Shown here: positions 10,102 through 64,000 of the stretch, piece by piece
How positions within the stretch are numbered: position 1 is the first letter of the stretch
How the letters are laid out: each line of letters begins with the position of its first letter
Assembly: GCF_030813715.1 (NCBI RefSeq)
Contig: NZ_JAUSUZ010000001.1
Location: forward strand, 7,440,001-7,504,000
Direction of reading: 5' to 3'
From: Catenuloplanes indicus
GTDB lineage: Bacteria; Actinomycetota; Actinomycetes; Mycobacteriales; Micromonosporaceae
DNA length: 64,000 nucleotides
Notes under the pieces: generated by a model
What the model saw: only the letters and a program-made list of their open reading frames with translations
Databases searched by the model: none
What the model was told of the DNA's origin: nothing
Made by a program: the position numbers and the translations under genes

Positions 10102-13100
10102 ATGGCGAATGCCGGGGATTTCCGTCTGATCTGCGCGGACGGCCGTTTCATCGCGGTGCCCGGCGGCGTCTTCTTCCACGACGGGCCGATGGCCGAGCCG
10201 GTCGATCCGGCCGCGCTGACCGGCGCGCTGCGGGCGCCCCGGGCCGGTGGCACGGTCACGGTCTTCGTGCCGGAGCGCGCCCGGACCAGGATCGGCGCGA
10301 CCGACCGGGTCCGCCGCGCGCTGGCCGACCTGCCCGCGCCGGTCCGGGAGCGGCTGGTGCTCGGCACGCTGCCCGGCGACACCGCGGACCCGGCGGTCTG
10401 GCTCGGCCTGACCGACGATTTCGGCCTGGCCACGCACGCGGCGTACCGGCCGGGTCTGACGCCCTCGCCGCGCGTCGTCCCGCTGGACGCCGCCGGCCTG
10501 GAGAGCAAGGACAATCCCGCGGCGGTACGGGTGCTGGCCCGCGACCAGGCCGCCGCGCGGGAGACGCTGCGCGCGGTCCTGGACGGTGCGCCGCCGTCCT
10601 GGGAGAGCCTGGAGCGGCTGGCCGTCCGGTCCGCCGAGATCCGCCGCGAGCTGGACGTGACGCCGGAGCACCGGGGCTCGTCCGGCGCCGGGTACGCGTA
10701 CGCCGCCGGTGTCGCGCTCTTCGGTGTGCCGGACGGCACCGACCCGGCCGTGCTGCGGCGCCGGGTGCGGCCGATCCGGGCGGACGAGGGGTTCCGCGCC
10801 TGGGGCACGCCCGCGGCCCCGGCCGACGCCGACGCTCTGGTGGCGTCGCTGGCCGCCACGCCGGGCTCGGCCCTGCTGGTCGCGGCGCCCGGCCGTCCCG
10901 GCCCGATCTGGCTGGTGTCCCGGCCGGCCGGGCTGTTCACCGTGGACCTGGCCGCGGACGGTGACGCGGCGATCACGGCCGTGACGCCGGAGGGCGCGAC
11001 GTCGCTGCTCGGCACGGCCTCGCTCGCGACCCGGGTCGGCCCCGCCGCGGCCCACGCCCCCGGCCCGGCCCGGCCGTTCGACGCGGAAGCCCCGGCCCAG
11101 CCGGGGCCGGCGCGGCTGGGTGGCCCGGACACCCCGGTCGACTTCTCCGCCGCCGGCATGCGCGCGCTGACCGGCCGGATCGTGACCCGGCTCGGTTCCG
11201 GCAGCGGCGACGTGTACTGCGCCGCCGCCATCGGCGTGGCCCGCGACGAGCTGTTCGGCCGGCTCGGCGTCGCACTGACCCCGCCGGACGGTCGCGCCCA
11301 CGACGACCTCGGCCTGCACGACGGCCTGTGGGCCGGCTGGGGCGTGCCCGGCACCTGGCCGCGCGCGTCCGGCTGGGCGGAGATCGGCCGGATCGTCGGC
11401 GCGGAGCCCGGCCGGGTCGCGTTCGTCCTGTCCGGACGGCCGGGCGCGATCGGCCACGCGTTCCTGGTGGTCAACACGGCCGACGGTGTGCTCTGGGTGG
11501 ATCCGTCCGCGACCCGCGACGCGGACCGGGTCCGCACGCACGCGGAGATGACCGCACCCGGCCCCGGCGGGCTCCCGAAGGCCGCCGCCGCGACCGACCT
11601 GCGCACCCGGATCTTTCGCCGGGACGGCACCGCGGTCACCGTCCCGGCCGCGCCGCCGGAGTCCGCGGGACCGGACGCGACCGCGCTGGCCATGGTGGAC
11701 CGCGCCGAGCGGCGCTACCGCGGCTCCGGCGTCGAGGACGAGGAGTCGGTGATGCTCTTCTTCCCACCGGGCGTCGAGCCGCAGCGTGTCCGGAGCCAGG
11801 TGCTGGCGTGGGGGCCCGATCACACGTACCGGATCGAGGTGGAGACCAAGGCGTTCTACCGGGGCGGGGACGGCCTGCTGTACGCCTCGCCGGTGGACGC
11901 GCGGGCGGCCGGTGGCGACGGCCGGGGGACGCTCGTGGGCATCATCGAGCGGGTCAGCGCGATCCTGCGGTCGCACCCGCACGAGGTGAACGGCTCGGAC
12001 CCGGGACCGGTGTTCGAGGCGTTCGGGAAGATGGCGGCGAGGACCGCGACGCTGACCGGCCCGGACGGCGCCGGCCCGGTCATGCCGCTCACCGAGTTCC
12101 TGGCCGGACTCGATCTCGGCCTCGAGTTCACCGACCTGGGCCTGCGCACCGCCGTCGGGCGCCCACCGGTCCGCGACGAGCCCGGCTCGCACTACCACTA
12201 CACGCACGGCGTCGTGCTCTCCGGCATGCGCGGCTTCCTCGAGCACGTCCGCGACAACACCTGGCGTGACCTGGACCGGGGTTACCTGACCCGGGAGCAC
12301 CTGACCGACGGTCTGCGGTTCGGCGACGAGCTGGCCGAGCGGTTCCTGGCGAGCAACCCGGAGTCGACCGAGACCGCGAACCTGATCGCCGGGTACGCGG
12401 CGCTGTTCTACGACAGCTTCGCCGGGGCCGCCACCTGGCCGATCGACGCCGGCCTGAACAAGGTCGAGATCGCGGTGCTGTCCCGGGTCGACGCGTTCGC
12501 CGACCTGCTGGACCGGATGCCGCTGGACGCGGTCGAGTTCTTCGGCGAGAACTGGGAGGACATCTGGGACGAGCTGGAGTTCAGCATCGGCACCCGGATC
12601 CCGGACTACGCCACGCGCTATCGGGCCAAGAACAACGACGAGCCGTTCTTCTTCCGGGACGACTTCCGGCACGCGCTCACCCACGGGCGGCTGCACACGC
12701 TCCAGGAGTACGCGAAGAGCGCGTTCGTGGCGGACGCCGAGCGGGTCACGCAGTGGGAGGCGATCGGCTTCACCACCGCGGCCCCGCTGGACATGGCCGG
12801 CGGCGCGCTGCTGATCGACCACATTCCGGTCGAGGTGCGCTCGTACGTCGCCCGCCGGGTCACCGCCCGCCGGGCCGAGCAGCTGAACGCGGAACTCGCC
12901 CGGCGTGCCTCGGCCGCGTACGACGCGGCGCTGGACATCGGCCCGGCGAAGCGCGCCGCCGGTGCCCGGGCCTGGCTGAGCCCGGTCGCGGAGACCGACC
13001 TGCGCTGGGTCAGCCGCCAGGAGCACCCGTCCGACGGGGTCCGCCTCCTCGGGTCGGCCGCGGCCGCGCAGGGACGCCAGCTGGTGGTGCTGGACGGCAC

Positions 13101-16100
13101 CGGTGAGGAGGCCGCGGGCGTGCTGGGCTTCGTGCTCGAGGACGCGCCGGAGCTGGCCGGCAGCGCGCTGTTCTGGGTACCGGTGCTCGACCGGCCGCTC
13201 AACGACGTCCGCCAGGCGCACCGGCTGAACATGATCTATCCGGTGCTCACCCGGGTGCCGGGGACGCTGGGCGCGGCGGCTCCGGTGGCCGCGCGCCACT
13301 GGCGGGTGGTGACGTTCGACAACCGGGTGATCGAGCTGGGCGAGGGCGACCTCACCCCGGACCGCCTCGAGGCCGCGCTCGGCCGGATGGACGCGGCCGC
13401 CCGCGCGGTGCCGCAGCCGGAGCGGGTGCCCCCGCCGGCGCTGACCGCCGCGGAGCTGACCACGCTGTTCCGGGACGTGGTCGCGTCCGGCCGGCGCCTG
13501 GCCCGGCACCGCGGCGACCGTACCGTGGCGGAATGTCTGGCCCTGGTCAAGGGCCTGGTCGGCCGGCTGCACCGGGGCGGCGTCCGGGTGCCGCGAACCC
13601 GGGAGGAACCGCTGCCGGGCACGTGGCTCGGCGACCGGCGGGACTGGGAGCGGTTCGGCGGCTGGGCGGCGCTGGACACCGACCCGCGGCTGGTCCCGGG
13701 CGCGACGGCCGTGGTGCTGACCGAGCGGACCGGCGCCGCGCACGGGCACGTCTACGCCGCCTACCGCACCGCGGACCAGGGCATCCGGTGGGTGAACCTG
13801 ACCGAGCGCGACGCGAGGCCGCGGGCCGGCGGGCCGGGGGAGACCCCGGCCGCGTTCGACGCGGACACGTACACCCGGATGATCGTGATCGGCCCGGACG
13901 GGGTGGTGGTCCCGGCCCGGGAACGGCCGGAGCCGGAGTCGCGGTCGCGGACCGCGCCGCTGCTGGACCCGCCGGTGAGCCGGGGGTACCGCGGTTCCGT
14001 CGTCGAGGACGAAGAGACCGTGATGCTCTTCCTCGACGACGGGCAGGACGCGAGCGTGCTGCGCGGCGGTCTGCTGGCGTACGGCACGCACGGCGGCTTC
14101 CGGATCGAGGTGGACACCAAGGCGGTCTACCGGGGCGCGGACGGCCGGTACTTCATCGACCGGGACGCCGCGATCGCAGCCGGTGGCGACGGGAAAGAGG
14201 TCACCGTCGCGATGATCGAGCGGGTCAGCGGGATCATGCGCTCGCACCCGCACGAGTTCCAGCGCGACGACCCGGACGACGTCTTCGACGCGTTCGCGCG
14301 GATGGCGGCGCAGACGCGGAACCTGCCCGGCCCGGACGGCGCCGGCCCGGTCATGTCGCTGCCCGACTTCCTCGCCCGGTCCGGCGTGGACGTCACGCTC
14401 ACCTCGATCGGCGCGCGCGTCTCGGTCGGCCGCCCGCCGGTCGGCGAGGCGCCCGGTTCGCACTACCACTTCACGCACGGCGTCGTGCTCTCCGGCATGC
14501 GGGACTTCCTCGAGCACGTCCGCGACCACACCTGGCGGGACCGGGACCGCGGCTACCTGACCCGGGACCACCTGACCGACGGCCTGGCGTTCGGCGACCG
14601 GCTCGCCGCGGACTTCCTCGCCACCGGCGACGGGCCGGACGCGGCCGCGACCGCGAAACTGATCGCCGGGTACGCGGCCCTGTTCTACGAAAACTTCGCC
14701 GGCGTCGCCACCTGGCCGGTCAGCCCGGAGCACCTGAACAAGGTGCACATCGCGGTGCTGTCCCGGGTGGACGCGTTCGCCGACCTGCTCGCCCGGCTGC
14801 CGGCCGACGCCGTCGACTTCCTCGGCGCGCGGTGGGCGACCATCTGGCAGCGGCTGGAGGAGAGCGTCCGGGCGCGCATCCCCGACTACGACGAGCGTCT
14901 GCGCGAGACAGGGCGCGCTCCGGAGTGGACGATCGGACGCTTCGACCTGGTACCGACGCACCGCGGTGCCACGCTCCGGCAGTACGCGGAGAGCGCGTTC
15001 GTGCTCGGCGCCGAGCGGGTCACCCAGTCCCAGGCGATCGACGTCACCACCGAGGCGCCGCTGGACCTGGCCGACGGCGCGCTGCTGGTCGCGCACGTGC
15101 CGGTCGAGGTGCTCTCGTACGGCGCGCGCCGGCTGACCGCACGCGAGGCCAGGGGCTGGAACCGGCGGCTGGCCCGCCGGGCGAACCGGGCGTACGAGGC
15201 GGAACTGGCGCTTGCCCCGGCCGTGCGCTCCGAACGCGGCCTGGGCTGGCTGGGCCGGCCACCGGAGCCCGGCGTCCGCTGGATCAGCGCGGTACCGGAC
15301 ACCCCGGACTGGGCCGGCGAACTCGGCCGGACCGCGGCCGCGATGGGCCACCCGCTGGTGGTGCTGGACGTCGAGGACGGCACCGGCGCGGCCGCCGAGC
15401 GCCTGTCCGCGCTGCTCACCGCGGAACCCGAGCTGATCCGCACCGCGCTGTTCGTGGCACCGTCCTGGGACGGCGGGCTCAACGACCTGCGCCGCGCGCA
15501 CGGGCTCAACATCGCGTACCCGATCGAGGTGTCGCGGCCGGGGACCGGGACCACCGACGCGTACTGGCGGCTGGTGACGTTCGACAACCAGGTCACCTAC
15601 CTGGGCACCGGTACGTTCACCTCCGGCACCGTGCTGAACGCGATGCTCGCGGTGAACAACGCGGCCTACGGTGCCCTGGCGACGTCCACCCAGCCCGAGG
15701 TGTGGCGGGCCGAGGTGGCCTACACGGCCCCGCCGGTGCCACCGCCGCTGCGGGAACCCGAGAACCCGGTCGCGGAGCTGCGCAAGCACGTCGACGCGGC
15801 CACCGAGCGGGTCACCGCGGTGCTGGACCGGTTCCCGCACTCGGTCGCGGCCGAACTGGTCCGCGCCGCGCTGGAGCGGCTGGCGGCCGCGGAGCTGCGG
15901 ACGCCCGGCGACGACGACGTGACGGAGCTGCTACACCTGCTGGACCAGGCCGCGGCCGAGGTGCTCCGGCTCGACCCGGGCGCCGAACCGGTGCTGCGGC
16001 CGCTGTGGTCCGGACGGTCGATCCCGGCCCGCCCGCTGCCGGCGCCGCGCAGCATCGGCCCGTGGACGGCCGGTGACCTCGGCGCGCTGACCGCCGGCCT

Positions 16101-17139
16101 GCGGCGCCCGGTGCTGACCGTGGACCTGACCGGCCGCACACCGGACGCGCTCGGCGACCTGGAACGCGCGCTGCGCGACCACGAGTGGTGGGGCGAGGTG
16201 CCGATCGTCATGGTCACGCTCGGCACCCGGGCCACCGACGACGCGTTCGCCGCGCTTCGCGAACGCTTCCGGCCGATCGTGGTGCGGGCCGCGGTGATCA
16301 GCGACGTCACGGACGTCCGGATGGTCTGGCGACTGTCCGGACCGGACGGTACCCAGGTGGCGCAGCAGGCCCGGCTGACCGCGGAGCTGGTCGCGACCGC
16401 GGCCCGGTTGCCCGCCGGACCGCGCGCCGCCGCACTGCCACCGGTCCTCGCCGGCCTGCTCACGGCCGGGCCGGACGCGGCCGGACACCACCGGCGGCAC
16501 GCGCGGGAACTCACCGACCCGGGCGTACGGGACGCGCTCGACCGGCTGATCACCACCGCGCCGGACGGGGAGCGCCTCGCCGGTTTCCGGGTCGCGCTCG
16601 GCCTGGACGCCACCGCCACGCACCGGCTCATCCCGGGCGTGCGCAGCCTGCTCGACGTCGAGCCGCCGTACACCGGCGGCCCGGTACCGGCGTCGTTCGC
16701 GTACGACGTGCTGGCGCTGGCCGGTGCCGGCCGCCGCGAGCGCTACGCCATGGACGGCCTGCTCTTCCAGATCGTGCTGGCCGGCCGGATGACGCCGGAC
16801 GCGGCGCTGACGCTGCTGCGGGCCGCCGCGCGGACCGCGGTCGACCGGGCCGTGATCGACGTGTTCGAGGCGGTGACCGAGGCGATGGCGCTGACCGACG
16901 AGCGGGCGGCCGGGGACCCGGCCGGCGACCCGGCGCTACGGGCCATCCTCACCAAGGTCCGGAAGGTGTCCAGCACCGCCCGCGCGCCGGGCGCACCGCC
17001 GCCGGACTGCCTGGACCCGGTGGACCGCACCGCGTTCGTCGGCCGCCTGGACGCGCTGCGCGACCTGTTGCGCGGCACCGGCCGGCCGGCCCGCGCCGCC
17101 CTGATCGAGACCCTGACCCACACCCTCTCCAACTGCTGA
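10102..17139 (+). CDS. G2: giant protein (2345 aa) with two papain-like domains and an internal duplication
   Basis: Start is ATG 10102, preceded by GAGGAG at 10090-10095 with 6-nt spacing. An in-frame ATG at 10027 lies inside the promoter, and the homologous G7 starts at the matching point. The N-terminal domain (about 1-120; LICADGRF, VPGG, LVLGTLPGD) is shared with G7 and, more weakly, G5 and G6. A papain-like domain follows: VYCAAAIG (C373), GHAFLVV (H452), LWVDPS (D467). Next is module A (about 538-1104), then a second papain-like domain: AECLALV (C1145), HGHVYAAY (H1216), WVNL (N1232). Module B (about 1295-1860) repeats A, with FRIEVDTK, RSHPHE, GSHYHFTHG and LNKVHIAVLSRVD. The terminal module (about 1975-2345) ends LSNC-stop. 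I see only five cysteines: C11, the two papain-like nucleophiles, one in DCLDPVDR and the last residue. No signal peptide or membrane segment is seen. Function unknown; the domains resemble toxin deamidase or peptidase folds. Confidence 0.93.
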   Translation: MANAGDFRLICADGRFIAVPGGVFFHDGPMAEPVDPAALTGALRAPRAGGTVTVFVPERARTRIGATDRVRRALADLPAPVRERLVLGTLPGDTADPAVWLGLTDDFGLATHAAYRPGLTPSPRVVPLDAAGLESKDNPAAVRVLARDQAAARETLRAVLDGAPPSWESLERLAVRSAEIRRELDVTPEHRGSSGAGYAYAAGVALFGVPDGTDPAVLRRRVRPIRADEGFRAWGTPAAPADADALVASLAATPGSALLVAAPGRPGPIWLVSRPAGLFTVDLAADGDAAITAVTPEGATSLLGTASLATRVGPAAAHAPGPARPFDAEAPAQPGPARLGGPDTPVDFSAAGMRALTGRIVTRLGSGSGDVYCAAAIGVARDELFGRLGVALTPPDGRAHDDLGLHDGLWAGWGVPGTWPRASGWAEIGRIVGAEPGRVAFVLSGRPGAIGHAFLVVNTADGVLWVDPSATRDADRVRTHAEMTAPGPGGLPKAAAATDLRTRIFRRDGTAVTVPAAPPESAGPDATALAMVDRAERRYRGSGVEDEESVMLFFPPGVEPQRVRSQVLAWGPDHTYRIEVETKAFYRGGDGLLYASPVDARAAGGDGRGTLVGIIERVSAILRSHPHEVNGSDPGPVFEAFGKMAARTATLTGPDGAGPVMPLTEFLAGLDLGLEFTDLGLRTAVGRPPVRDEPGSHYHYTHGVVLSGMRGFLEHVRDNTWRDLDRGYLTREHLTDGLRFGDELAERFLASNPESTETANLIAGYAALFYDSFAGAATWPIDAGLNKVEIAVLSRVDAFADLLDRMPLDAVEFFGENWEDIWDELEFSIGTRIPDYATRYRAKNNDEPFFFRDDFRHALTHGRLHTLQEYAKSAFVADAERVTQWEAIGFTTAAPLDMAGGALLIDHIPVEVRSYVARRVTARRAEQLNAELARRASAAYDAALDIGPAKRAAGARAWLSPVAETDLRWVSRQEHPSDGVRLLGSAAAAQGRQLVVLDGTGEEAAGVLGFVLEDAPELAGSALFWVPVLDRPLNDVRQAHRLNMIYPVLTRVPGTLGAAAPVAARHWRVVTFDNRVIELGEGDLTPDRLEAALGRMDAAARAVPQPERVPPPALTAAELTTLFRDVVASGRRLARHRGDRTVAECLALVKGLVGRLHRGGVRVPRTREEPLPGTWLGDRRDWERFGGWAALDTDPRLVPGATAVVLTERTGAAHGHVYAAYRTADQGIRWVNLTERDARPRAGGPGETPAAFDADTYTRMIVIGPDGVVVPARERPEPESRSRTAPLLDPPVSRGYRGSVVEDEETVMLFLDDGQDASVLRGGLLAYGTHGGFRIEVDTKAVYRGADGRYFIDRDAAIAAGGDGKEVTVAMIERVSGIMRSHPHEFQRDDPDDVFDAFARMAAQTRNLPGPDGAGPVMSLPDFLARSGVDVTLTSIGARVSVGRPPVGEAPGSHYHFTHGVVLSGMRDFLEHVRDHTWRDRDRGYLTRDHLTDGLAFGDRLAADFLATGDGPDAAATAKLIAGYAALFYENFAGVATWPVSPEHLNKVHIAVLSRVDAFADLLARLPADAVDFLGARWATIWQRLEESVRARIPDYDERLRETGRAPEWTIGRFDLVPTHRGATLRQYAESAFVLGAERVTQSQAIDVTTEAPLDLADGALLVAHVPVEVLSYGARRLTAREARGWNRRLARRANRAYEAELALAPAVRSERGLGWLGRPPEPGVRWISAVPDTPDWAGELGRTAAAMGHPLVVLDVEDGTGAAAERLSALLTAEPELIRTALFVAPSWDGGLNDLRRAHGLNIAYPIEVSRPGTGTTDAYWRLVTFDNQVTYLGTGTFTSGTVLNAMLAVNNAAYGALATSTQPEVWRAEVAYTAPPVPPPLREPENPVAELRKHVDAATERVTAVLDRFPHSVAAELVRAALERLAAAELRTPGDDDVTELLHLLDQAAAEVLRLDPGAEPVLRPLWSGRSIPARPLPAPRSIGPWTAGDLGALTAGLRRPVLTVDLTGRTPDALGDLERALRDHEWWGEVPIVMVTLGTRATDDAFAALRERFRPIVVRAAVISDVTDVRMVWRLSGPDGTQVAQQARLTAELVATAARLPAGPRAAALPPVLAGLLTAGPDAAGHHRRHARELTDPGVRDALDRLITTAPDGERLAGFRVALGLDATATHRLIPGVRSLLDVEPPYTGGPVPASFAYDVLALAGAGRRERYAMDGLLFQIVLAGRMTPDAALTLLRAAARTAVDRAVIDVFEAVTEAMALTDERAAGDPAGDPALRAILTKVRKVSSTARAPGAPPPDCLDPVDRTAFVGRLDALRDLLRGTGRPARAALIETLTHTLSNC

Positions 17140-17153
17140 CCCGGGAGCCTGCC

Positions 17154-19184
17154 GTGACCCTTCCGCTGACCCAGCGCGTCATGGACGCGATCTGCCTCGA
17201 CCACATCATCCCGACCGGCTCCGGCCTGCACCTGCGCCGGGACGGGATGGCCGCGCTGACCGACGACCCGCTGATGCTGGCCGCGTTCGACGTGATCGCG
17301 CCGGACGGCAACACGTACATCACGCTCGGCAAGGGCATGACGGAGGCGTTCGACGACCTCGCGCCGGACAGCGCCCGGGTCGGCGACGACGGCGTGCGCG
17401 CGCCCGGCGGCGCCGGCACGCACGCCCAGCGGGTCGCCCGCGGCCTGCTCTACCAGTTCCTGAACGGGCACCCGGACTACGCGCTGGACCGGATGGTAGA
17501 ACGCCCGCTCGGCGACCACGACCTGAACCTGACGGCTGCGGCGGCCCGAGCGGACGTGGCCGGGCTGCCGGTGGACATCCTCGCGACCGCGGACCTGAGC
17601 GGCGTGGACCGGAACCGGCTGATCGGCTTCTCCCGGGACCTGCGGATCGTGCCGATCGACCAGGCCCAGATCATCCGGGTCGTGCCGCTGCGGCACTGGG
17701 CCCCGGACCCGTACGCGGGCCAGGGCAAGGAGCTGCTGGACAGCGTGCTCTCCACGCCGTACCCGTCGGCCCGGATCACCTTCGACGGCCAGGGCGGCGT
17801 GCGGCTCGGCCTGCCCCCGGCGCTCGTCGCGCACGCCTACGGCGAGGTGCTGCGCCGCACCGGCACGCCGCTGGACGCCCGCGACTTCCCGAAGACCTCC
17901 CAGCTGATCCAGGGGTACGGCGACCTGCTCGCCGCGATCGCGGACAGCCCGGTGGGCGCGCACACGATGATCCAGGTCGGCGACCAGGTCACGCTGGCAC
18001 TGCACGACGCGCACGGCATGTCGTTCGTGGACCCGGCCACCGGGCAGGAAACGGTCTTCGCCGCCGACCCGGCCGACCCGATCCGGATCGCACCGCTCGG
18101 CGGCGAGATGGACCTGGAGACCCGGCTGCTCGACCTGGCGGCGGGCCGGCCCGGCGGGGACGGCCCACGGCTGCCGGTGCGGGTCTCCGGCGCCGCGGAC
18201 GTGTACCGCGACTTCGGCGGCTCCCGGACGCTGGACGTGATCGGCGGCGTGCCGTCCCGGTTCATGGACCGGATCGCCGAGGCCGCTTCCCGGCTCGACC
18301 AGTCCGTCGTGGTGATCGGCTCGGAACGGCTCTCCGACGCGCCGACCCCGGCCGAGCTGGCCGCGCTCGACTGGCAGCTGTTCCAGCACACCAACAACCG
18401 TGGCGTACCCGTGGTGATCACCCGTGGCACGGTCAGCGACGGGCTGCGCCGGATCGTCGAGCACTACCGGGTGCCGCTGCTGCACCAGACCGCCGGCACC
18501 GGCACCGGGTTCAGCCTGGACAACCTGTGGGCCGGCGTCGGCGGCGCGACCACGGTGCCGCCGGCCAAGGAGATCACCGCCGACCTGCTGGCCGCCTACG
18601 CCGGTCGCCGTCGCGTGTCCACGCTGGACAAGGCGCCGGCCGCGCTGTCGTCGTTCCTGACCACACCGCTGGAGAACGCGGATGCCATCCGCGCGGCGCT
18701 GGCCGAGCACGGGTCCGCGCTGCGCGACCTGCGGCCCGAGATCACGAAGTTCGGAGCGACCGCGGGCGTGTTCGCCGCGCACGCCGCGTTCCTGAACGTG
18801 CTCGACCGAGACCCGGTCTTCGCCGACACGCTGCTCACCTACCGGGCCGGCGGCGACGACCGGGCCGACGGCCTGTTCGCCGCGGTCCCGGCCGTGGCAA
18901 CCCAGGAGCCGGCGGTCCGGGACGCCGCGTTCGCCGAGATCGACGCGATCACGCTCGGCACGCTCGACGACGGCGCCAGCCGCGCCATCCTCAAGGCGCT
19001 GCACCTGCACCTGCAGGGCGCGCCCGAGGGCACGGTCCGGGACATGATCTACAGCCACAGCACGTACCTGCCGCGGGACGGTCGCACCCAGTGGATCCGC
19101 CGCCTCCAGGACCTGCAGAGGCAGATGCCCCAGCACGCCGACGGCCTCAACCAGGTCGCGCTGTTCGTCACCACGTGTCCATAG
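17154..19184 (+). CDS. G3: 676-aa family protein with only two cysteines, ending TTCP
   Basis: GTG 17154 is chosen because GGGAG (17143-17147) lies 6 nt upstream, the gene starts 14 bp after the G2 stop, and the N-terminus matches G4 (MDAICLDH versus MDAICLEH). The frame is open further upstream inside G2, but only as a shadow. No known enzyme domain is recognised. Visible elements are an N-terminal region with PLRHWAPDPYA and PSARITFDGQGGVRLGLPPALV (both echoed in G4), a Rossmann-like strand (SVVVIGSE, PVVITRGT), and a helical C-terminal region with ITLGTLDDGASRAILKAL and YLPRDGRTQW. The protein ends VTTCP-stop. By eye the only cysteines are C14 and C675. Almost certainly co-transcribed with G2. 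Paralogue of G4 and of the remnant around the transposon. Confidence 0.9.
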   Translation: MTLPLTQRVMDAICLDHIIPTGSGLHLRRDGMAALTDDPLMLAAFDVIAPDGNTYITLGKGMTEAFDDLAPDSARVGDDGVRAPGGAGTHAQRVARGLLYQFLNGHPDYALDRMVERPLGDHDLNLTAAAARADVAGLPVDILATADLSGVDRNRLIGFSRDLRIVPIDQAQIIRVVPLRHWAPDPYAGQGKELLDSVLSTPYPSARITFDGQGGVRLGLPPALVAHAYGEVLRRTGTPLDARDFPKTSQLIQGYGDLLAAIADSPVGAHTMIQVGDQVTLALHDAHGMSFVDPATGQETVFAADPADPIRIAPLGGEMDLETRLLDLAAGRPGGDGPRLPVRVSGAADVYRDFGGSRTLDVIGGVPSRFMDRIAEAASRLDQSVVVIGSERLSDAPTPAELAALDWQLFQHTNNRGVPVVITRGTVSDGLRRIVEHYRVPLLHQTAGTGTGFSLDNLWAGVGGATTVPPAKEITADLLAAYAGRRRVSTLDKAPAALSSFLTTPLENADAIRAALAEHGSALRDLRPEITKFGATAGVFAAHAAFLNVLDRDPVFADTLLTYRAGGDDRADGLFAAVPAVATQEPAVRDAAFAEIDAITLGTLDDGASRAILKALHLHLQGAPEGTVRDMIYSHSTYLPRDGRTQWIRRLQDLQRQMPQHADGLNQVALFVTTCP

Positions 19185-19409: not shown

Positions 19410-21512
19410 GTGAACCTGCCGATATCGCCGCGCACCATGGACGCGATCTGCCTCGAGCACGTCCTGCCGACCACGGGCGGCACATACCTCTTCAACGCGC
19501 CGTCGTCGAGCCTGGCCGGCGACGAGAAGCTTAGGGACATGAAAGACATTCCGGTCATCCGCGGGTACGGGAGCCTGACCTTCGGGATCGGCCTGGGTGA
19601 TCCGATCCTGAGCAGCCCGGTGACTGTGATGGGCGACGACGGTGTCCCGCGGCCGGCCCGGGAGCTGAGCCCGCAGGAGGCCCAGGCACTCGACCTGGCC
19701 CGTCAATATCTTCGAAGCCTCCCGCCCGAGGCGCTGGACATCCTGAGCAACCGGCCCGCCGACTCGCAAATGACCCTGGATCAACTCGCCGAGTACGCCG
19801 ACAAGCTGCACTTCCAGGCGGAGACCGCGCTCCGGCGACTGATCGACGCGGCCCTCACGATCAATCCGAACCGGCTCCTGTATCTCGACGGCGACGGCCG
19901 GCCCGTCATTCGCGAGCGCGCGGCGGTCGTCAAGGTGGCACCGATCGAGCATCGTGCCCCGAACCCGTTCGCTGACGTCGACCCGTCGCTTCGGGAGCTG
20001 GCACTGTCGCGTGCGGGCGGATATCCCAGCGCCCGGATCGTCTTCGACGCCGGCGGCCGGGTGCAGCTCGGCATGCCACCGGCACTGGTCCGGCACCTGG
20101 AGAGCCGGACCAGCGAGCCGGCGCCGTCCCCCCGTGTCCCGGACGGCATCACCGGCCCGGAGCGGTTCGGCATGTACAACGACCTGATGGCCCGGATCGC
20201 GGAACACCACCAGGAGGTCAGGATCGAGGTGCGGGCGCGCGGCGGGCAGCACGTCGAGACGTTCAAGGCCGTGCACGACGAGCACGGGATCCGGTTCACC
20301 GATCCGCGCACCGGCGAACCCGCGCTGTTCCCGGCCGAGACGGAGATGATCCAGGCCACCGCGTGGGACCCGGCGGATCTCGCCGCCGTCGACACCGGCA
20401 CCGCCGTGACCCCGCTGCCGATCGTGCGGCCCAAGGGCTTGACGGTGCACCGCACGTACGGTCCGGACGACCGCCTCTCGGTCGACGTGCTGGGCGCGCG
20501 GGACTCCGTACCGGCGAACTTCCTGGACCAGGTCGCCGGTCTCGGTGCCGACGCCGGCCGGTCGGTGGTGGTGGTCGGCCACCCGGCTGGAAAGGCGGAG
20601 GCCGCGCGCGATCTGGCCCGGGCGCAGTCGCTGCTGTTCCAGCGGGCCTGGAACCTTCAGCACGGCCGGGACACCGAGCCGATGCCGATGGTCATCGACT
20701 ACGGCGGCGTCGGCCCGGAGCTGAGCGGCCCGGCCGCGGCGCTGGGCGCGCCGGTGCTGCGCCGCGAGCTGGGCACCGGTCTCGACATCGGGGTCTCGTG
20801 GCGGATCGTCGGCGCGGACGGCGTCGTGGCCGGAACGGCGCAGAAGGGCGTCCCGCAGGACACCTCCGTCTGGTCCGGCACACCGGTCCGGGCGAACCCG
20901 GCGCTCGACATCGACCGGACGATGGCGTCGTACCTGTCGATGAGCATGGACGACGTGCCGGCGCTGGTCGCCGCGCTCACCGTGGACGGCAGCACGCTCA
21001 AGAGTCTCCGCCCGGCCGTCGACGCCCTGCCGGTGGACCCGCGGGTGTTCGCCCCGCAGATGAAGCTGCTCGACCTGCTCGACACGGCGGACGGCCGATT
21101 CGAGGCCGGCATCGACTACCTGAGGCGGGTCGAGGGCGGCACGGTCCAGGCACTGCCGGACATCACGAAGGTCCTGCACCTCGGCACGGACGCGCTCGAC
21201 GACCTCGCCGCCCTCACCCTGGGCACGATGGACGACGGCGCGTCCCGGAGCATCCTCGCGGCGATCCGCAAGGGCATCGAGGGCGTCGCGGGCATCACCG
21301 CCGTGTCCACCGGGGACCAGGCGGCGGACGGCGCGGCGCGCGAGCAGGTCTACCGGCAGATGCGTGACGAGATCTTCGCGCACAAGGACTACCTGCCGGG
21401 CAAGGGCAGCCGCACCGATTACGTCCGGGCGCTGCAGGGCTGGGCGCAACAGCTGGAGGAGCACCGCGACGTGCTCAGCCAAGCCGCGCTCTATGTCACC
21501 ACCTGTCCCTGA
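19410..21512 (+). CDS. G4: 700-aa family protein with only two cysteines, ending TTCP
   Basis: Start GTG 19410 with GGAGAG at 19399-19404, 5 nt upstream. Paralogue of G3: the same opening (MNLPISPRTMDAICLEH), IEHRAPNPF versus LRHWAPDPY, SARIVFDAGGRVQLGMPPALV, a Rossmann-like core (SVVVVGHPAG, PMVIDYGG), ALTLGTMDDGASRSIL, DYLPGKGSRTDYV and the ending YVTTCP-stop. The region near 360-520 also parallels the terminal modules of the giant proteins (beta strand, helical stretch, terminal cysteine). C14 and C699 are the only cysteines I find. No catalytic motif, signal peptide or membrane segment is recognised. No ECF-type promoter lies in front, so it is probably read from the G2 promoter. Confidence 0.9.
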   Translation: MNLPISPRTMDAICLEHVLPTTGGTYLFNAPSSSLAGDEKLRDMKDIPVIRGYGSLTFGIGLGDPILSSPVTVMGDDGVPRPARELSPQEAQALDLARQYLRSLPPEALDILSNRPADSQMTLDQLAEYADKLHFQAETALRRLIDAALTINPNRLLYLDGDGRPVIRERAAVVKVAPIEHRAPNPFADVDPSLRELALSRAGGYPSARIVFDAGGRVQLGMPPALVRHLESRTSEPAPSPRVPDGITGPERFGMYNDLMARIAEHHQEVRIEVRARGGQHVETFKAVHDEHGIRFTDPRTGEPALFPAETEMIQATAWDPADLAAVDTGTAVTPLPIVRPKGLTVHRTYGPDDRLSVDVLGARDSVPANFLDQVAGLGADAGRSVVVVGHPAGKAEAARDLARAQSLLFQRAWNLQHGRDTEPMPMVIDYGGVGPELSGPAAALGAPVLRRELGTGLDIGVSWRIVGADGVVAGTAQKGVPQDTSVWSGTPVRANPALDIDRTMASYLSMSMDDVPALVAALTVDGSTLKSLRPAVDALPVDPRVFAPQMKLLDLLDTADGRFEAGIDYLRRVEGGTVQALPDITKVLHLGTDALDDLAALTLGTMDDGASRSILAAIRKGIEGVAGITAVSTGDQAADGAAREQVYRQMRDEIFAHKDYLPGKGSRTDYVRALQGWAQQLEEHRDVLSQAALYVTTCP

Positions 21513-54936: not shown

Positions 54937-55076
54937 ATCGTGCCCGACCTCCAGGGCACGGCCCGGGACATGATCTACAGCCACCGCACGTACCTGCCGC
55001 GGGACGGCCGCACCCAGTGGATCCGCCGCCTCCGGGACGTGCAGAAGCAGATGCCCCAGCACGCCGACGGCCTCAA
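54931..55076 (+). pseudogene. G3/G4-like gene remnant, left half (split by transposon)
   Basis: From ATG 54931 the frame reads DLQGTARDMIYSHRTYLPRD, then GRTQWIRRL, QMPQHADGLN. This is nearly identical to codons of the G3 3' end (19005-19155) at protein and DNA level. The match stops at GCCTCAA (55070-55076), where the transposon begins; the frame then hits a stop at 55081. The remaining 3' codons (LNQVALYVTTCP-stop) lie 4.4 kb away at 59494-59534. The 5' part of the gene is missing, so this was already a fragment or was deleted later. Confidence 0.85.
55070..55076. repeat. 7-bp target-site duplication, left copy (GCCTCAA)
   Basis: GCCTCAA at 55070-55076 is repeated at 59494-59500. Joining the two flanks through one copy restores the G3-like reading frame (ADGLN + QVALYVTTCP), which shows that it is a target duplication. 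Confidence 0.85.
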
Positions 55077-55428
55077 TGATTAGACCCGCGAGAAACGACA
55101 CCAGAGGTTCGTGAGTTTTGACTCCCCTGACCGGCTCGGCCGGAGATCAATCTCCGCGAGTTTTGACCGCACTCTGGTCCTCTGCCGTGGGCTGTTCAGG
55201 GTCGTTGGCGGTTTGCAGGCGGAGCCGGGTGAGCGCGAGCATGTCGATCAGCCAGCCCGGGCCGCCGCTGATGTGGCGGGCGCGGAGGACGGTGTCGAGT
55301 TCGCGGTGAACGGCTGGGTCGGCGTGGGCGAAGAAGTCTTCGCAGATGCCGAGGATCGTCGGTAGCAGGTCGTCGTCGAGTTCGCCCGGATCCATCGGGT
55401 TCTCCGCAGCAGCGCAGGCGGCGGGTGG

Positions 55429-57454: not shown

Positions 57455-57713
57455 CGGCCGGCCTCCGTCTCGGGTCAGCCGATGCTCCCACCACCATCCG
57501 TGGTGTTGAAACTCGCGGACATCGAATCCACCCGATCAAGCGTCCACCAACCGTGGTGTCAAAACCGACGGATAAACGCCATGCCAGAGCAGTTCCGACT
57601 CAGAAACGGTCAGCTCTGGCAGCGGTCCCGTTCGGTCGGGAGTTGGTCCCGGTGTCTGCTCGGGCCCTGGCCGCGGGTGGTTGCAGTGCATGGACTCGCG
57701 GCAGTCTGAGATG
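57455..57713. other. Gap between istA and the passenger genes: inner right-end repeats
   Basis: No gene is seen here. The sequence holds inverted CGAGTTT(T/C)(A/G)AC-type repeats at 57505-57516 and 57558-57566, matching those at the outer right end, and an 8-bp inverted repeat GCCAGAGC/GCTCTGGC (57583-57590, 57613-57620). It looks like an ancestral IS right end, now internal. Confidence 0.55.
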
Positions 57714-57748
57714 TGCCCGGCCGGCTTCTGGCGTCAGCCGGCCGGGCA
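57714..57748. terminator. Strong stem-loop terminator of the oxidoreductase gene
   Basis: TGCCCGGCCGGCT (57714-57726) and AGCCGGCCGGGCA (57736-57748) form a perfect 13-bp stem with a 9-nt loop, 4 nt beyond the stop codon of the minus-strand oxidoreductase. Confidence 0.8.
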
Positions 57749-57752
57749 TGGC

Positions 57753-58676: not shown

Positions 58677-58727
58677 CTTCTGCCACCTCCGGTGCGACCG
58701 GCCCGGTCGTTCCGGGCGCCGCAGCCA

Positions 58728-58758
58728 TCCTCACCGCTCACACTGATGTGAAGGGCAA
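58728..58758 (-). promoter_or_regulatory. Candidate MerR-type operator/promoter of the oxidoreductase
   Basis: On the minus strand TTGCCC (58758-58753) is followed by a 19-nt spacer and TGAGGA (58733-58728). The spacer holds the dyad TCACA-N4-TGTGA (58738-58751). A dyad in an over-long 19-nt spacer is the hallmark of MerR-activated promoters. The -10 match is weak. Confidence 0.45.
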
Positions 58759-58782
58759 CCGGCTGAGGTGCGGGTCACAGCG

Positions 58783-59178
58783 TCAGGCCGACGCCGTCAC
58801 CGGGACCGAGGCCGTCGGCGGCTCCACCCAATGCTCGCGGTTGATCTTGATCAGCACGTCGAGTGCGTCACGGGTTTCGACCAGGTGGGCGATATCCGCG
58901 TTGATCCGATCGCGCTCGCGCGTCATCGCCACAAACGCCGACTGGATGCCGGCAGGGTCACTCGGGGTGTCCACACACGGCAGCACAGACGCGATCACCC
59001 GGCTGGACATACCCGCGGCGAACAGTTGCTGGATCAGCAACACCCGCTGGACCTCGGCATCGGAATAGTGACGCTGCCCAGCATCGGAGCGTGCACTGGT
59101 CAGCAGGCCCTGCTCCTCGTAGTACCGCAACGAGCGTGGACTCACGCCCGTACGCTTGGACAGCTCGCCGATCCGCAT
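58783..59178 (-). CDS. MerR family transcriptional regulator (131 aa)
   Basis: N-terminal winged-HTH of the MerR family: MRIGELSKRTGVSPRSLRYY, EEQGLL, GQRHYSDAEVQRVLLIQQLF; then a coiled dimerisation helix (TRERDRINADIAHLVETRDAL). Length is typical of the short MerR regulators that sit next to oxidoreductase genes. There is one Cys (PCVDTP, about residue 68) and no metal-binding Cys cluster. The start is chosen from the conserved MRIGEL. GAAGG touches the ATG directly, so initiation may be leaderless. Likely activates the downstream reductase gene, 106 bp away on the same strand, through the dyad at 58738-58751. The inducer is unknown. Confidence 0.93.
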   Translation of the reverse strand: MRIGELSKRTGVSPRSLRYYEEQGLLTSARSDAGQRHYSDAEVQRVLLIQQLFAAGMSSRVIASVLPCVDTPSDPAGIQSAFVAMTRERDRINADIAHLVETRDALDVLIKINREHWVEPPTASVPVTASA

Positions 59179-59493
59179 TCCTTCAAGCCTACGCCCGCGT
59201 GCTCCAGCGCTCAGGCCACCGGCAGATCACAGATGCAGGGGTGGGACCCAACCCCACGCACATCAACCACGGCGAAACGCTCAATCCCGGGTCGAGAAAC
59301 GCCCATCCGGGTACTATCGCCACGTTTCCACCCGGTGATCGTAACGGGACACGAGCTTGCCACGCGGCACCAAGACGAGTCGTACCGAGCTCACAAAGCT
59401 GTGGTGTCGAAACTCGTGAACATGAAATCCAGCATCGATCTTGCGGTGTCAAAAGTGGTGTTCATCCGGTGTCCGGATGCGCGGAGACAATCA
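59179..59493. other. Right end region of the transposon, no gene
   Basis: Noncoding as far as I can see. It contains the upstream region of merR, the inverted terminal repeats at 59406-59418 and 59448-59457, and the outer inverted repeat ending at 59493. Confidence 0.6.
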
Positions 59494-59534
59494 GCCTCAA
59501 CCAGGTCGCGCTGTACGTCACCACCTGTCCCTGA
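59494..59534 (+). pseudogene. G3/G4-like gene remnant, right half (LNQVALYVTTCP-stop)
   Basis: Begins with the second target duplication GCCTCAA (59494-59500) and supplies the codons missing from the left half at 54931-55076. The ending VTTCP-stop is that of G3 and G4. Followed directly by a terminator. Confidence 0.85.
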
Positions 59535-59645: not shown

Positions 59646-59695
59646 GTTGGTCATCAGCGCCGCCACGTCCGGCGGCGCCGGGTGAGGAGAGCGGC

Positions 59696-62600
59696 GTGGC
59701 GAGTGCCGGGGACTTTCATCTGATCTGCGCGGACGGCCGTTTCATCGCGGTACCGGGCGGCGTCTTCTACCACGACGGGCCGATGACCGACCCGATCGAC
59801 CCGATCGCCCTGACCGGCGCGTTCCGGGCCTCCCGCGCCTCCGGCGCCACCATGGTCTACATCCAGGAGCGGACCCGGCTCAAGCCGGGTGCGCTGGAAC
59901 GGCTGCGCCGCGCGCTCGCCGACCTGCCCGCGCCGATCCGTGACCGCCTCGTCCTCGGCACCCTCCCCGGCGAGAGCATCGACCAGGCGAACTGGCGAGA
60001 GCTCGCGGAGGTGTTCGGCCTCGCCAAGCACGCGCCGTACCAGCCCGGCATGGAACGCTCCGCCCGTGTCGTACCGCTGGATGAATCGGGTCTGGAAAAC
60101 CCGGCCGACCCCTCGGCGGTACGCGTGCTGTCCCGCGCTCAGGCCGCCGCCCGGGAGACGCTGCACGCCGCGTTGACCGGCGCGCCCCCGTCCTGGGACC
60201 GGCTCGTCGCGCTGGCCGGCCGCGCGTCCGCCATCCGCGACGACCTGCTGGTCCCCTCGAGGCTGAGCGGCGACGAGCAAGACAGCCCGCTGAGCGCCAC
60301 GTACGCGCTCGCGGCCGGCATCACGCTGTTCGGACTCCCGGCCGACATCGACGGGGCCACGCTGAAGCGGTCCGTGCAGCCGGTCAGCGCCGACGAGGTG
60401 CTGCGCGCCTGGGGCGGATCCGCGATCCCCACCGACCCGGCCGACATCGTCGCCACGCTGCTCGCCACGCCGGGCTCCGGCGCCCTGATCCGGACGGACA
60501 TCACCGGCAGGGGCCCGGTCCTCGGCTGGCTGGTCTCCCGGCCGGAGGGCCTGGCCTGGATCAACCCGGCACTGGACGGCGGCGCCGCCATCCGCCTGAT
60601 GCCCGCGCAGGACGCGGTGTCCCTGCTGCGCACTCTGCCCGGCACCGACCTGAAATCGCTCCTGGTCGGCCCGGACCGACCGGTGGATCTGGCCCGGACG
60701 AATTCGTTCGACTCGGTGACGTCGACGGACTCGTCCGACTCGATGCGGTCCACGGGCACCGACCTCACCACACCGGACGACACGCGTCCGTCCGGTACCG
60801 CACCCGGCCGCGACGCGCGGCTGGGTGGTCTTGGCCTCGTCACCCTGGCGCTGGAGTACGCCGACATACCATTCACCGCGGAACCCGTGGCCCGGCCGAA
60901 TCTGACCGATGCGGACCAGCGCGCCGCCGCGCTGGACCGGGTGAAGCGGTGGACGATGGGAGTGGAGATCCCGGCGTCCGTGGCCGATCCGGCCGTTCTC
61001 CCACCGGAGGACTGCGTGGAGCGTGCCTGGGGTGCGTTCGTGGCGCTGCATCGACGGACCGGCAATGTCGCGGCCGACGCCGAGCTGCTGGAGACGAAGT
61101 CGGCGGAGGCACTGGCGGCCCGGCTCGGTGGCAGGCTGTCCCTGGCATGGGATCCGGACGGGCTGGAGCAGCTCCTGCTCGACCGGCCGGGCACCATGGT
61201 GCTGGTACGCACGCCCCCGCGCCCGGGCGGGATGTCGCATGTGTTCTGGCTGGCGTCCACCGGCTCCGGCGGCCTGATCCCGCTCGACAGTCAGCGCGTG
61301 AGAAGCTCCGAGCAGATCGACGGCAGGACGCCACCGGCCGTCCTCGCCCGCTATCTCGCCGAGCTCCGGCACGTCGGCACCGACGTGCTGCTGCTGGACG
61401 AGCGGGGTCAGACGGAGGCTCTGCGCGGAACGCCGTCCTCGGCCGCGGCGCTGGTCGACGCACCCGTCGGCCGCCGGAGTGCGGGCATGGCGCCCGGCTA
61501 CGCGCCGCCGCCTCCGCCTCCGCCTCTCTCCCTGGCCCAGCAGGCTCGCAACCTGGACGCGTCGTACGCCCAGTATGCGGCGATGCCGGGATATGCACAG
61601 AATCCTCAGGCGCTGCAAAACCTCTACGACACGTGGTATGTGCCGTCCAACAATGCCATCAAGTCGAATCTGCTTCGGCGGGTGGCAGTGTCGGTGCAGA
61701 CACCATGGGGGCCGGCCTGGGTCGTGGCCAGGGGTCTCAGCGGTAGAACCGAGGACGAGAACCTGCTGCGAAGTCGCTACTACCCACAGACCAATGTGAA
61801 CGAGGACGCCGGAACCGACAACTGCTTCTACTGCTCCATCGCAGTGGAAGCCCACCAGAGCGGTGAGGGCGGATTGAGGACGCTCACCCATGCGAGCGCG
61901 GTGCAGTCTCGCATCGGCCTCGAGTACCGGTTCCGGGAATCATTCAAGCGGTACCGGGACATGAGTGGCCGTCCCATCGCCGGGTCGCTGGGGGTAATCG
62001 CCGACGTCAACGCGCAGGGCGCCGGCTTCCGTGGTCTGATCGCGCAGTACCCGACGCCGTCACCCGATCCCGAGGTGGTGAATGTCGGACACGTATTCAA
62101 CGTCATAAATGATTCGGGATACGTCGTCTTCCTCGATGGACAAGCGGAGCACTTCGGTCAGCTGGCCGATATGCTGCCCAACGGCAACATTGCGATGACG
62201 GCGCTGCTGACCACTGAACCTGGGGTTCGGGCGGGCATTACCGTCGGCGGAAGATCCGCCGCGGAGGACGCCCCGTACGGCGAGGAAAGTGCGCCTGCGG
62301 CGTCGCATGACCGGTTCGTCAACGTGCTGTCGTCCATTCCTCTGCCCGGCGTCGTCTCATCGTTGCCGTCGTCGGTGGGGGATGTTCGGGCTGCGGTTGG
62401 TGCCGCTCGGTCTCGATGGGATGAGATGTACGACCGGGTGGTGTCCGCGATCGACGTGCTGGAGCAATCACCGCATATCTCGACGGCACGGCGGGCGTCG
62501 GCTGCTGCGGTGCGTGAGGTGCTCGACCGGCTGCGCTCGGCGATCGGTGATCTAGCGGAGCGAGTCTTCGGTCTGCCGGACGATGAGGCGCGGGTGCAGG

Positions 62601-64000
62601 CCGGGATGCTCGCGGAGCGGTACGAGCTGGCGAACCAGACGCTGGTGCCGCTGCTGAGCGACCTCCCGGCCACCGCGCTGCTGGCGCCGGTGTCCGAGAT
62701 GGTGCGGGACGGCCGGGTGCTGGCGCCCGCCTCCGAGATGTTCCGGGCGCCCGGCGGTGCGCTGGCGGACGGCCCGGTCGTCGCTCTCCCCGCGGACAAC
62801 GACCTCACCGTTCTCATGCAGGACAGGGCCGGCCCCCCGTGGGCGGTGTCGACCGCATCGGCGCTTCCGCCGTACACGGTGGGGGTGGCGCCGGACGGTT
62901 CCTATGTCGTGGCCAGGGCGCCGGCGCCCGGAGAGAACAAGCCGTACGGATTCTCCGGTTTCGAGGTGTTCGGCCCGGACGGGCTCCCACGCGGGACGAT
63001 CGAGGCATCGATCGACGCGACCGAGCCCGGCCCGACGACCGACGGCTTCGTCGCCACGGACTTCCTGGTCAACCTGTCCGACGTCGCGGATGCTCTGGAC
63101 CTGACCACCTTCTATGCCACCGGGGTGAGCGCCGGCGAGTTCTTCTACTCACTGCGCGTCGGCAACGAGAAGGTCTGGGACATCCGTGAGAACGAATACC
63201 GAATGGAGGTTCTGTCCGGCCCGAACGCCAATCCGCGTGACTATCGGCAGGAACGGACGGTCAGCCACGAGAAGGCCCGCGAGCGGCTGGTGGAGCGCGG
63301 CTGGACGCTTCCCGCCGAGGGGTTCTCCGGAAGTCAGGTGCTGCGCCCGGCGTGGACCAGCGTCGATCCCGGTTGGGCGCCGGTGGTCGTCACGGCGGAC
63401 GGCATCGAGTCGCTGTCCGTGATCATGGAGACGCTGGACGGCGGGTCGGTCCGGCTGGTCTCCGGCCGCTACCTCGACGACGGTGGATTCGCCGTGGTGA
63501 ACCCGGACACCGGTGCCGTCGTCGGGCGGCTGCGGTCCTGGGCCGGGGAGGACCGGGTGCCCCGGTGGTCCGGCGAGGCGCTCTCGCCGTCGGCCGCCCG
63601 GTGGTTCGGCGAGGAGGACCTGACGGCGGACGAATTCGTCCGGGCCGTCGTGCTGGGCGGCACGCGCGTACGGGACGATCTGGCCATCCCCGGCTTCGGC
63701 CTGTACCGGCTGGAGATGGACGACGCGGTCTTCCTGGTCCGGGCGATGGTCGACGCGGATGGCGGCGTGGTGCGAGCGCGCCGGCCGCTGGCACTCGATG
63801 AGGCGATGTACGGCGGCCTCGGTGCGGACGGATCCGATCCGATCGCCGGGCTGCGCGGGGCCGGGTGGACGGTGTCGACCGGTCACCGAAATCGCGTCGA
63901 CGCGCACACCCGGACGCTGACGATCGACCCCTACAGCGGGTTCGCCCGGGACGCGGTGACCACGGCGCAGGCGCATCAGGCGCGTGCGAACGACCTGCAG
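59696..64000 (+). CDS. G7: giant mosaic protein with Tox-PL (papain-fold deamidase-like) domain, 3' partial
   Basis: GTG 59696 with GAGGAGA at 59684-59690; the frame stays open for 1435 codons to the window edge. Opening VASAGDFHLICADGRF matches G2 (C11). After the family N-terminal domain and a segment parallel to G2 comes a papain-like domain (DCVERAW C440, SHVFWLAS H515, IPLDSQ D531), then a proline run (PPPPPPP). Next is a clear Tox-PL-like domain: NCFYCSIA (C710, C713), GHVFNVIND (H799), VVFLDGQ (D814, Q816). Papain-fold toxin-1 domains of this type are known to deamidate glutamine in target proteins. A helical part follows, then the VGVAPDGSYVVA/SDVADALDL/VERGWTL/PAWTSVDPGW module also found twice in G1. 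The continuation presumably leads to a terminal Cys module. No signal peptide is seen. Confidence 0.93.
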   Translation, partial: MASAGDFHLICADGRFIAVPGGVFYHDGPMTDPIDPIALTGAFRASRASGATMVYIQERTRLKPGALERLRRALADLPAPIRDRLVLGTLPGESIDQANWRELAEVFGLAKHAPYQPGMERSARVVPLDESGLENPADPSAVRVLSRAQAAARETLHAALTGAPPSWDRLVALAGRASAIRDDLLVPSRLSGDEQDSPLSATYALAAGITLFGLPADIDGATLKRSVQPVSADEVLRAWGGSAIPTDPADIVATLLATPGSGALIRTDITGRGPVLGWLVSRPEGLAWINPALDGGAAIRLMPAQDAVSLLRTLPGTDLKSLLVGPDRPVDLARTNSFDSVTSTDSSDSMRSTGTDLTTPDDTRPSGTAPGRDARLGGLGLVTLALEYADIPFTAEPVARPNLTDADQRAAALDRVKRWTMGVEIPASVADPAVLPPEDCVERAWGAFVALHRRTGNVAADAELLETKSAEALAARLGGRLSLAWDPDGLEQLLLDRPGTMVLVRTPPRPGGMSHVFWLASTGSGGLIPLDSQRVRSSEQIDGRTPPAVLARYLAELRHVGTDVLLLDERGQTEALRGTPSSAAALVDAPVGRRSAGMAPGYAPPPPPPPLSLAQQARNLDASYAQYAAMPGYAQNPQALQNLYDTWYVPSNNAIKSNLLRRVAVSVQTPWGPAWVVARGLSGRTEDENLLRSRYYPQTNVNEDAGTDNCFYCSIAVEAHQSGEGGLRTLTHASAVQSRIGLEYRFRESFKRYRDMSGRPIAGSLGVIADVNAQGAGFRGLIAQYPTPSPDPEVVNVGHVFNVINDSGYVVFLDGQAEHFGQLADMLPNGNIAMTALLTTEPGVRAGITVGGRSAAEDAPYGEESAPAASHDRFVNVLSSIPLPGVVSSLPSSVGDVRAAVGAARSRWDEMYDRVVSAIDVLEQSPHISTARRASAAAVREVLDRLRSAIGDLAERVFGLPDDEARVQAGMLAERYELANQTLVPLLSDLPATALLAPVSEMVRDGRVLAPASEMFRAPGGALADGPVVALPADNDLTVLMQDRAGPPWAVSTASALPPYTVGVAPDGSYVVARAPAPGENKPYGFSGFEVFGPDGLPRGTIEASIDATEPGPTTDGFVATDFLVNLSDVADALDLTTFYATGVSAGEFFYSLRVGNEKVWDIRENEYRMEVLSGPNANPRDYRQERTVSHEKARERLVERGWTLPAEGFSGSQVLRPAWTSVDPGWAPVVVTADGIESLSVIMETLDGGSVRLVSGRYLDDGGFAVVNPDTGAVVGRLRSWAGEDRVPRWSGEALSPSAARWFGEEDLTADEFVRAVVLGGTRVRDDLAIPGFGLYRLEMDDAVFLVRAMVDADGGVVRARRPLALDEAMYGGLGADGSDPIAGLRGAGWTVSTGHRNRVDAHTRTLTIDPYSGFARDAVTTAQAHQARANDLQ

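What the first reader, a model, noticed from the sequence alone, without database searches (positions are those of the whole stretch)
10102..64000. Giant protein family with cysteines capping both termini and almost nowhere else
Seen directly: G2, G5, G6 and G7 all have Cys at residue 11, and G3 and G4 at residue 14. G1, G2, G5 and G6 end ...NC-stop; G3, G4 and the split remnant end ...TCP-stop. G3 and G4 have only these two cysteines in about 700 residues. G5 has about six in 6256, the others being papain-like nucleophiles, one isolated Cys and one in a CLDPxDR motif near the end. Such restriction implies strong selection on terminal thiols. Inference: head-to-tail disulfide or thioether, thioester-type crosslinking, metal binding, polymer assembly or a processing tag.
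Basis: partly seen in the sequence, partly recalled or inferred. Interest (0 to 1): 0.88.

Follow-up and report, generated by a model that had tools for sequence, protein, structure and literature searches.

The report
Giant proteins capped by cysteines
A family of bacterial proteins up to about 12,000 amino acids long keeps cysteines at both ends and very few in between, which suggests, but does not prove, that the two ends are chemically joined after the protein leaves the cell.

Summary
All 18 full-length homologues of G3/G4 (27-49% identical to G4) have exactly two Cys, in the same two columns. They hold about 67 other Cys in about 152,000 residues, many in DC/NC motifs like papain-type nucleophiles. 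The one copy seen to have lost a cap Cys is broken.

Giants and small proteins share both end domains by profile comparison. In three Catenuloplanes genomes a type VII secretion (T7SS) locus lies among the giants and encodes a 5.2-7.4-kaa relative with a WXG100-like head and exactly two Cys, one in the head and one at the C-terminus. A Streptomyces family with no detectable homology at its ends shows the pattern in 11 of 11 genes read on one plasmid.

Best reading: exported, polymorphic-toxin-like giants whose ends are closed by a disulfide. Conservation and homology are shown; export and disulfide are inferred. Linkage to the co-encoded small partner is the main rival.

The parts
1..6558 (+). 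G1, upstream part of a split giant; begins left of the window (G000:C1:7433914) with an N-terminal ICADG Cys
6509..9997 (+). G1, downstream part in another frame; CVDPVDR Cys at 9866-9868 and ...ANC-stop
10102..17139 (+). G2, giant of 2345 aa; N-cap Cys 10132-10134, CLDPVDR Cys 17008-17010, last Cys 17134-17136; Gln_amidase (papain fold) match at residues 429-468
17154..19184 (+). G3, small protein of 676 aa with exactly two Cys (17193-17195 and 19176-19178)
19410..21512 (+). G4, small protein of 700 aa with exactly two Cys (19449-19451 and 21504-21506)
21583..40353 (+). G5, giant of 6256 aa, six Cys; caps at 21613-21615, 40216-40218 and 40348-40350
41175..54893 (+). G6, giant of 4572 aa, five Cys; caps at 41205-41207, 54756-54758 and 54888-54890
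54958..55080 (+). First recognisable piece of a small-protein remnant (C-terminal region), frame ends here
59496..59531 (+). Second piece of the remnant, ...LNQVALYVTTCP-stop
59696..64000 (+). G7, giant that runs off the window; N-cap Cys 59726-59728; ends ...ANC-stop at G000:C1:7508989

Best explanation
These are giant, modular, polymorphic-toxin-like proteins of Catenuloplanes and some relatives (Micromonosporaceae), found around a type VII secretion locus and often encoded next to a ~700-aa paralogous partner. Each is a scaffold of an N-terminal cap domain (~150 aa) and a C-terminal cap domain (~440 aa, ending in a predicted helical hairpin) with long domain arrays, some papain-like, between. 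After export to the oxidising exterior, the Cys in the N-terminal domain and the Cys at the extreme C-terminus form a disulfide that closes the two ends into one covalent unit. In the giants a third Cys at the base of the C-terminal hairpin gives an alternative or resolving partner. Other Cys are selected away because they would mispair. Shown: the proteins, homology of both ends between giants and small proteins, invariance of the cap Cys in intact copies, depletion elsewhere, adjacent genes, a T7SS locus inside the cluster, and a WXG-headed relative with exactly two Cys. Inferred: export of the canonical giants, the disulfide itself, and the toxin role.
For: 18 of 18 full-length small proteins have exactly two Cys in invariant columns. 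40 of 40 intact three-Cys members keep all three caps; the N-terminal Cys was not part of the search query. Homology of the C-terminal caps, probability 98.6%, last Cys in register, and of the N-terminal caps, 97.0%. T7SS genes (beta-helix/AAA, FtsK/SpoIIIE, WXG100, YukD/EccD) directly before a WXG-headed giant in G000, with orthologues of the set in G067 and G047; those three giants have exactly two Cys, one in the head and one at the end, so the pair of ends is kept although the N-terminal domain differs. Proteins with two Cys allow only one intramolecular disulfide, end to end. Independent family: 11 of 11 Streptomyces plasmid genes read have both end Cys, with no detectable end homology. 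Loss of the last Cys was seen in a broken copy. Streptomyces giants with related modules lie in annotated ecc loci.
Against: No disulfide was observed; no model coordinates or Cys-Cys distances were available, and the N-terminal residues with the Cys have low pLDDT. Three cap Cys in giants is an odd number. Canonical giants have no recognised export signal here and no family match to a T7SS signal. A search for EccB found none near the cluster. The WXG100 match of the head is below cut-off in G047 and absent in G000. A 19,673-aa giant in a Streptomyces T7SS locus has 3 Cys and none near its ends, so Cys depletion occurs without capping. The papain-like nucleophiles would be further free thiols in an oxidising place.
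Confidence: 0.42

Rival explanations
1. Intermolecular linkage: the terminal Cys join a giant to its co-encoded small partner or to a WXG100 protein, or join copies head to tail, so the exported unit is a disulfide-linked complex or polymer.
For: Giant and small genes are neighbours in many loci (for example G2-G3, G4-G5 and loci) and share both cap domains. The WXG100 protein of the T7SS locus has one Cys in G000, G067 and G047 that the Streptomyces counterpart lacks. Three Cys in giants leaves one spare.
Against: Some giants were read with no small gene found beside them in the small-family search (for example the 1.6-1.9-kaa ones). The 706-758-aa forms keep all caps alone. Exactly-two-Cys proteins with one at each end fit closure as simply.
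Confidence: 0.28
2. The cap Cys form a metal, cofactor or redox-sensing site, or the CxxxDR-type Cys is catalytic, with no disulfide closure.
For: Three conserved Cys in the giants; invariant C, D and W in the CxxxxDRxxxW region of A2; the predicted hairpin places two of the Cys near each other (inference).
Against: The small family and the WXG-headed giants have only two Cys. The His near the N-terminal Cys is not kept in G277 or P0004. No known enzyme or metal family matched.
Confidence: 0.14
3. Cys depletion is just a property of very long exported proteins, and the cap Cys are ordinary buried residues of the cap folds without a linking role.
For: T7SS giants of Streptomyces without the cap rule are also Cys-poor (3 in 19,673 residues; 10 in 11,009).
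Against: The cap Cys are invariant where mean column identity is 37-43%, the end-to-end pair persists when the N-terminal domain is a different one, and it recurs in a family with unrelated ends.
Confidence: 0.1
4. The C-terminal Cys is a processing, lipid or thioester attachment tag.
For: It is the last or nearly the last residue in the giants.
Against: It does not explain the matching N-terminal Cys; up to 9 residues follow it in some small proteins and up to 10 in the Streptomyces family; no modifying enzyme was found or searched for specifically.
Confidence: 0.04

Closest known systems
Giant multi-toxin proteins of actinobacteria (Zhang et al. 2012, PMC3482391; passages read)
   Same: Giant actinobacterial proteins that combine several effector domains; G2 has a papain-fold Gln_amidase domain, a type the paper treats as Tox-PL1 (equating the two is from recall).
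   Different: The passages seen do not describe terminal Cys, the cap domains, or the paired small protein; other domains named there (ART, caspase, lethal-factor-like) were not matched in the window proteins scanned.
Type VII secretion (WXG100/ESX) loci and effectors
   Same: A locus with EccC-like, WXG100 and YukD/EccD genes lies in the giant cluster and precedes a WXG-headed giant with the family's C-terminal cap.
   Different: Canonical giants and small proteins have their own N-terminal cap instead of a WXG or LXG head; no EccB was found near.
Streptomyces linear-plasmid giants annotated 'toxin glutamine deamidase domain-containing protein' or 'hypothetical protein' (NZ_CP109476.1)
   Same: N-terminal (mostly ICF) and C-terminal (NGxxIxxC-like) Cys with 0-2 others; an interior module matches G2 at 26-33% identity over parts of the query in the plasmid search.
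   Different: End domains show no detectable homology with the window family (hhalign probability below 1%).

Membership tests
T7SS (WXG/ESX) effectors | Encoded in or beside a T7SS locus | tested here: met
   Locus at G000:C1:7387558-7419129, inside the giant cluster 7286642-7508989; orthologous sets in G067 and G047. The window genes themselves lie 21 kb or more away.
T7SS (WXG/ESX) effectors | N-terminal WXG/LXG-type targeting domain | tested here: inconclusive
   Sub-threshold WXG100 and T7SS_signal matches in the G047 relative, none in the G000 relative. No Pfam match to such a domain in G2, G3, G4, G5 or G6 as scanned.
T7SS (WXG/ESX) effectors | Export depends on the T7SS ATPase | not testable with these tools
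   Needs a knock-out and secretome.
Polymorphic toxins | Recognised toxin or effector domain | tested here: inconclusive
   Gln_amidase above cut-off in G2 (27.4 bits against 24.1), below cut-off in G5; RIO/kinase-like match below cut-off in one relative; none in G3, G4, G6 or in the parts of the G277, G277b and G036 proteins scanned.
Polymorphic toxins | Adjacent immunity gene | not tested
   No search for immunity families was made.
Known anti-phage defence proteins | Match to PADLOC models | tested here: not met
   0 matches for G4, G2 and P0002 at E up to 0.01.
Phage proteins | Match to PHROGs models | tested here: not met
   0 matches for G4, G2 and P0002 at E up to 0.01.

The most novel reading that the evidence does not exclude
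An undescribed design rule of giant exported actinobacterial proteins: the two ends of chains up to 11.8 kaa are covalently stapled by a disulfide between an N-terminal domain and the last residues, making a disulfide-closed ring. It arose at least twice and shapes the whole protein by purging other cysteines.
Probability: 0.33. Interest if true: 0.88.

Novelty: new variant of a known kind. Interest (0 to 1): 0.74.

Why it matters
It defines a simple chemical feature shared by very long bacterial proteins. If the ends are joined, these would be extremely large disulfide-closed single chains, which bears on how a chain of 5,000-12,000 residues is exported, folded and protected. The ~700-aa two-Cys members make the idea directly testable by mass spectrometry, and the cap motifs give a way to find further members among unannotated giants.

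Tried and rejected

Caveats. Giants were found with the C-terminal domain of G6 or profile A2, so members with another end would be missed. Some further matches were not read to both ends and are not in the 40. Relatedness of the sequences was not modelled, so counts are not independent events. In one search one row (G067_7021459) was overwritten by a truncated duplicate, hence 39 of 40 there; its full frame has both C-terminal Cys, and one more internal Cys is added to the 66 counted. P0005 lacks an N-terminal Cys as annotated; its DNA was not read. L151's annotated start omits an in-frame upstream ICFD. Of the 11 Streptomyces plasmid genes, 10 were hits and one was a neighbouring gene. A twelfth, from another plasmid (L095), also has both end Cys; a truncated-looking one (L101) has only the N-terminal Cys.
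Full report
What is in the window. Reading frames on the + strand belong to one superfamily: G1 (split), G2, G5, G6 and G7 are giants; G3 and G4 are ~700-aa proteins; a further small gene is a remnant in two pieces at 54.96-55.08 and 59.5 kb. The window is G000:C1:7440001-7504000. The named relatives found by scan are Catenuloplanes japonicus, so the host is probably Catenuloplanes (Micromonosporaceae); the genome itself is unnamed.

The observation. Each stated position was confirmed (see observation check). The number of Cys alone is not striking for G3 or G4 (2 seen, 5.4-5.6 expected, P 0.08-0.10) but is for the giants: G5 has 6 where 50 are expected at the local rate of 0.80%.

Homologues of the small proteins. 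They were found in 7 of 300 genomes of the family, this one included. Nineteen hits were read: 18 full-length, all with exactly two Cys in columns that are invariant in alignment A1; the other is a fragment with a frame break.

Homologues of the giants. The C-terminal domain of G6 matched in 9 of 300 genomes of the family, this one included. Profile A2 matched in 5 of 5 genomes of the genus with 4-16 matches each, and in 2 of 394 genomes drawn from the class, this one included, the other weakly (E 4e-4). The distribution is narrow and centred on this genus, but the class sample is thin.

Intact three-Cys members. Forty were read to both ends: 29 and 11 (one of them a 706-aa form). All 40 have the N-terminal Cys (mostly in C.DG), a Cys of CLDPxDR type 39-53 residues from the end, and a Cys at the last or next-to-last position (with one overwritten row corrected). 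About 152,000 residues hold about 67 other Cys. Their contexts in the 30 proteins include many DCVxR, DCAxR and NCVxxx strings that resemble papain-type nucleophiles, and others (such as AECLALV and GCVPVHL) that do not. An 11.8-kaa and a 2436-aa member in G277 have three Cys each. Exception: a broken copy in this genome keeps the first two cap Cys but reads SNLLTLGNI where others read SNC.

One superfamily. The C-terminal half of the small proteins aligns with the giants' C-terminal domain (probability 98.6%, E 1e-15), last Cys in register; YLP in the small proteins stands at the place of the giants' CLDP. N-terminal domains of giants align with those of the small proteins (97.0%) and of the Micromonospora proteins (97.1%), but the latter two do not match each other directly (10%). 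The Micromonospora proteins P0002-P0004 (731-758 aa) have exactly three Cys; the G251 protein shows the same three positions. So a giant looks like a ~700-aa scaffold with large insertions between its caps. Giant and small genes are often neighbours, usually giant first, as G2-G3 with 14 bases between, sometimes small first, as G4-G5.

Link to type VII secretion. At 7387558-7419129 of this genome, 21-52 kb left of the window and inside the giant cluster (7286642-7508989), lie a beta-helix/AAA gene, an FtsK/SpoIIIE (EccC-like) gene, a WXG100 gene above cut-off and a second below it, a YukD/EccD gene, and then a 7102-aa protein with a WXG100-like head and a small-type C-terminal cap. That protein has exactly two Cys from its assumed start: residue 105, in the head, and the third residue from the end. 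The five T7SS genes have orthologues in G067 and G047, with giants of 7397 and 5196 aa that again have exactly two Cys. A relative in G006 has the C-terminal Cys, but its head was not in the frame read. The WXG100 assignment of the head is weak: sub-threshold in G047, none in G000. Streptomyces plasmids carry giants with related modules in annotated ecc loci: 11,009 aa with 10 Cys (one at residue 74, one 5 from the end), 9,938 aa with 6, and 19,673 aa with 3, none near its ends. Cys depletion is thus wider than capping. For the canonical giants the T7SS link is proximity plus a shared cap, so it is inference.

A second capped family. On Streptomyces sp. NBC_01455 plasmid NZ_CP109476.1, 11 of 11 genes read (10 hits and one neighbour) have a Cys at residue 6-14, one of them only after reading an in-frame upstream start, and one within 10 residues of the end, with 0-2 others. 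Their ends show no detectable homology with the window family. Either the rule arose twice or the homology is lost.

Mechanism. Proteins with exactly two Cys, one at each end, leave a single intramolecular disulfide, end to end; the alternative is links between chains. In the model of the minimal three-Cys form, Cys707 lies just before helix 710-730 and Cys751 just after helix 735-750. In an antiparallel hairpin these points would be close, so the third Cys of the giants could exchange with the end-to-end bond. That is inference from secondary structure: the N-terminal residues are of low confidence and no coordinates were seen.

Known work and verdict. Giant multi-toxin proteins of actinobacteria and papain-like toxin domains are in print (PMC3482391, passages read). 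Nothing on terminal-Cys capping was found in the searches listed under tried and rejected. I call the proteins a new variant of a known kind; the capping rule is the new part.

Noticed in passing
window 55081-59495: DNA between the two pieces of the small-gene remnant carries a Mu-transposase-like ORF (55841-56869, minus strand) and a zinc-dehydrogenase-like ORF (57753-58676, minus strand), so the remnant was probably split by an insertion.
   Followed up: partly
window 6509-6558 (G1): G1 is broken by a change of frame: an upstream part of 4214 aa and a downstream part of about 1160 aa. Decay or a sequencing error was not distinguished.
   Followed up: no
L103/L104, NZ_CP108601.1:313719-372740: A 19,673-aa protein in a Streptomyces plasmid T7SS locus with only 3 Cys, annotated hypothetical.
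   Followed up: partly
L063/L064, G000:C1:2000643-2029520; L022: A 9.6-kaa paralogue elsewhere in the genome, with a 43-aa remnant of a small protein (84% identical to G4's end) just beyond its start.
   Followed up: no
L057:14736-15053: The WXG100 protein of the Catenuloplanes T7SS locus has one Cys kept in G000, G067 and G047 and absent from the Streptomyces counterpart.
   Followed up: no
G000:C1:7376443 onward: A 3223-aa frame with no Cys and repeat-like sequence lies between the giants and the T7SS locus.
   Followed up: no
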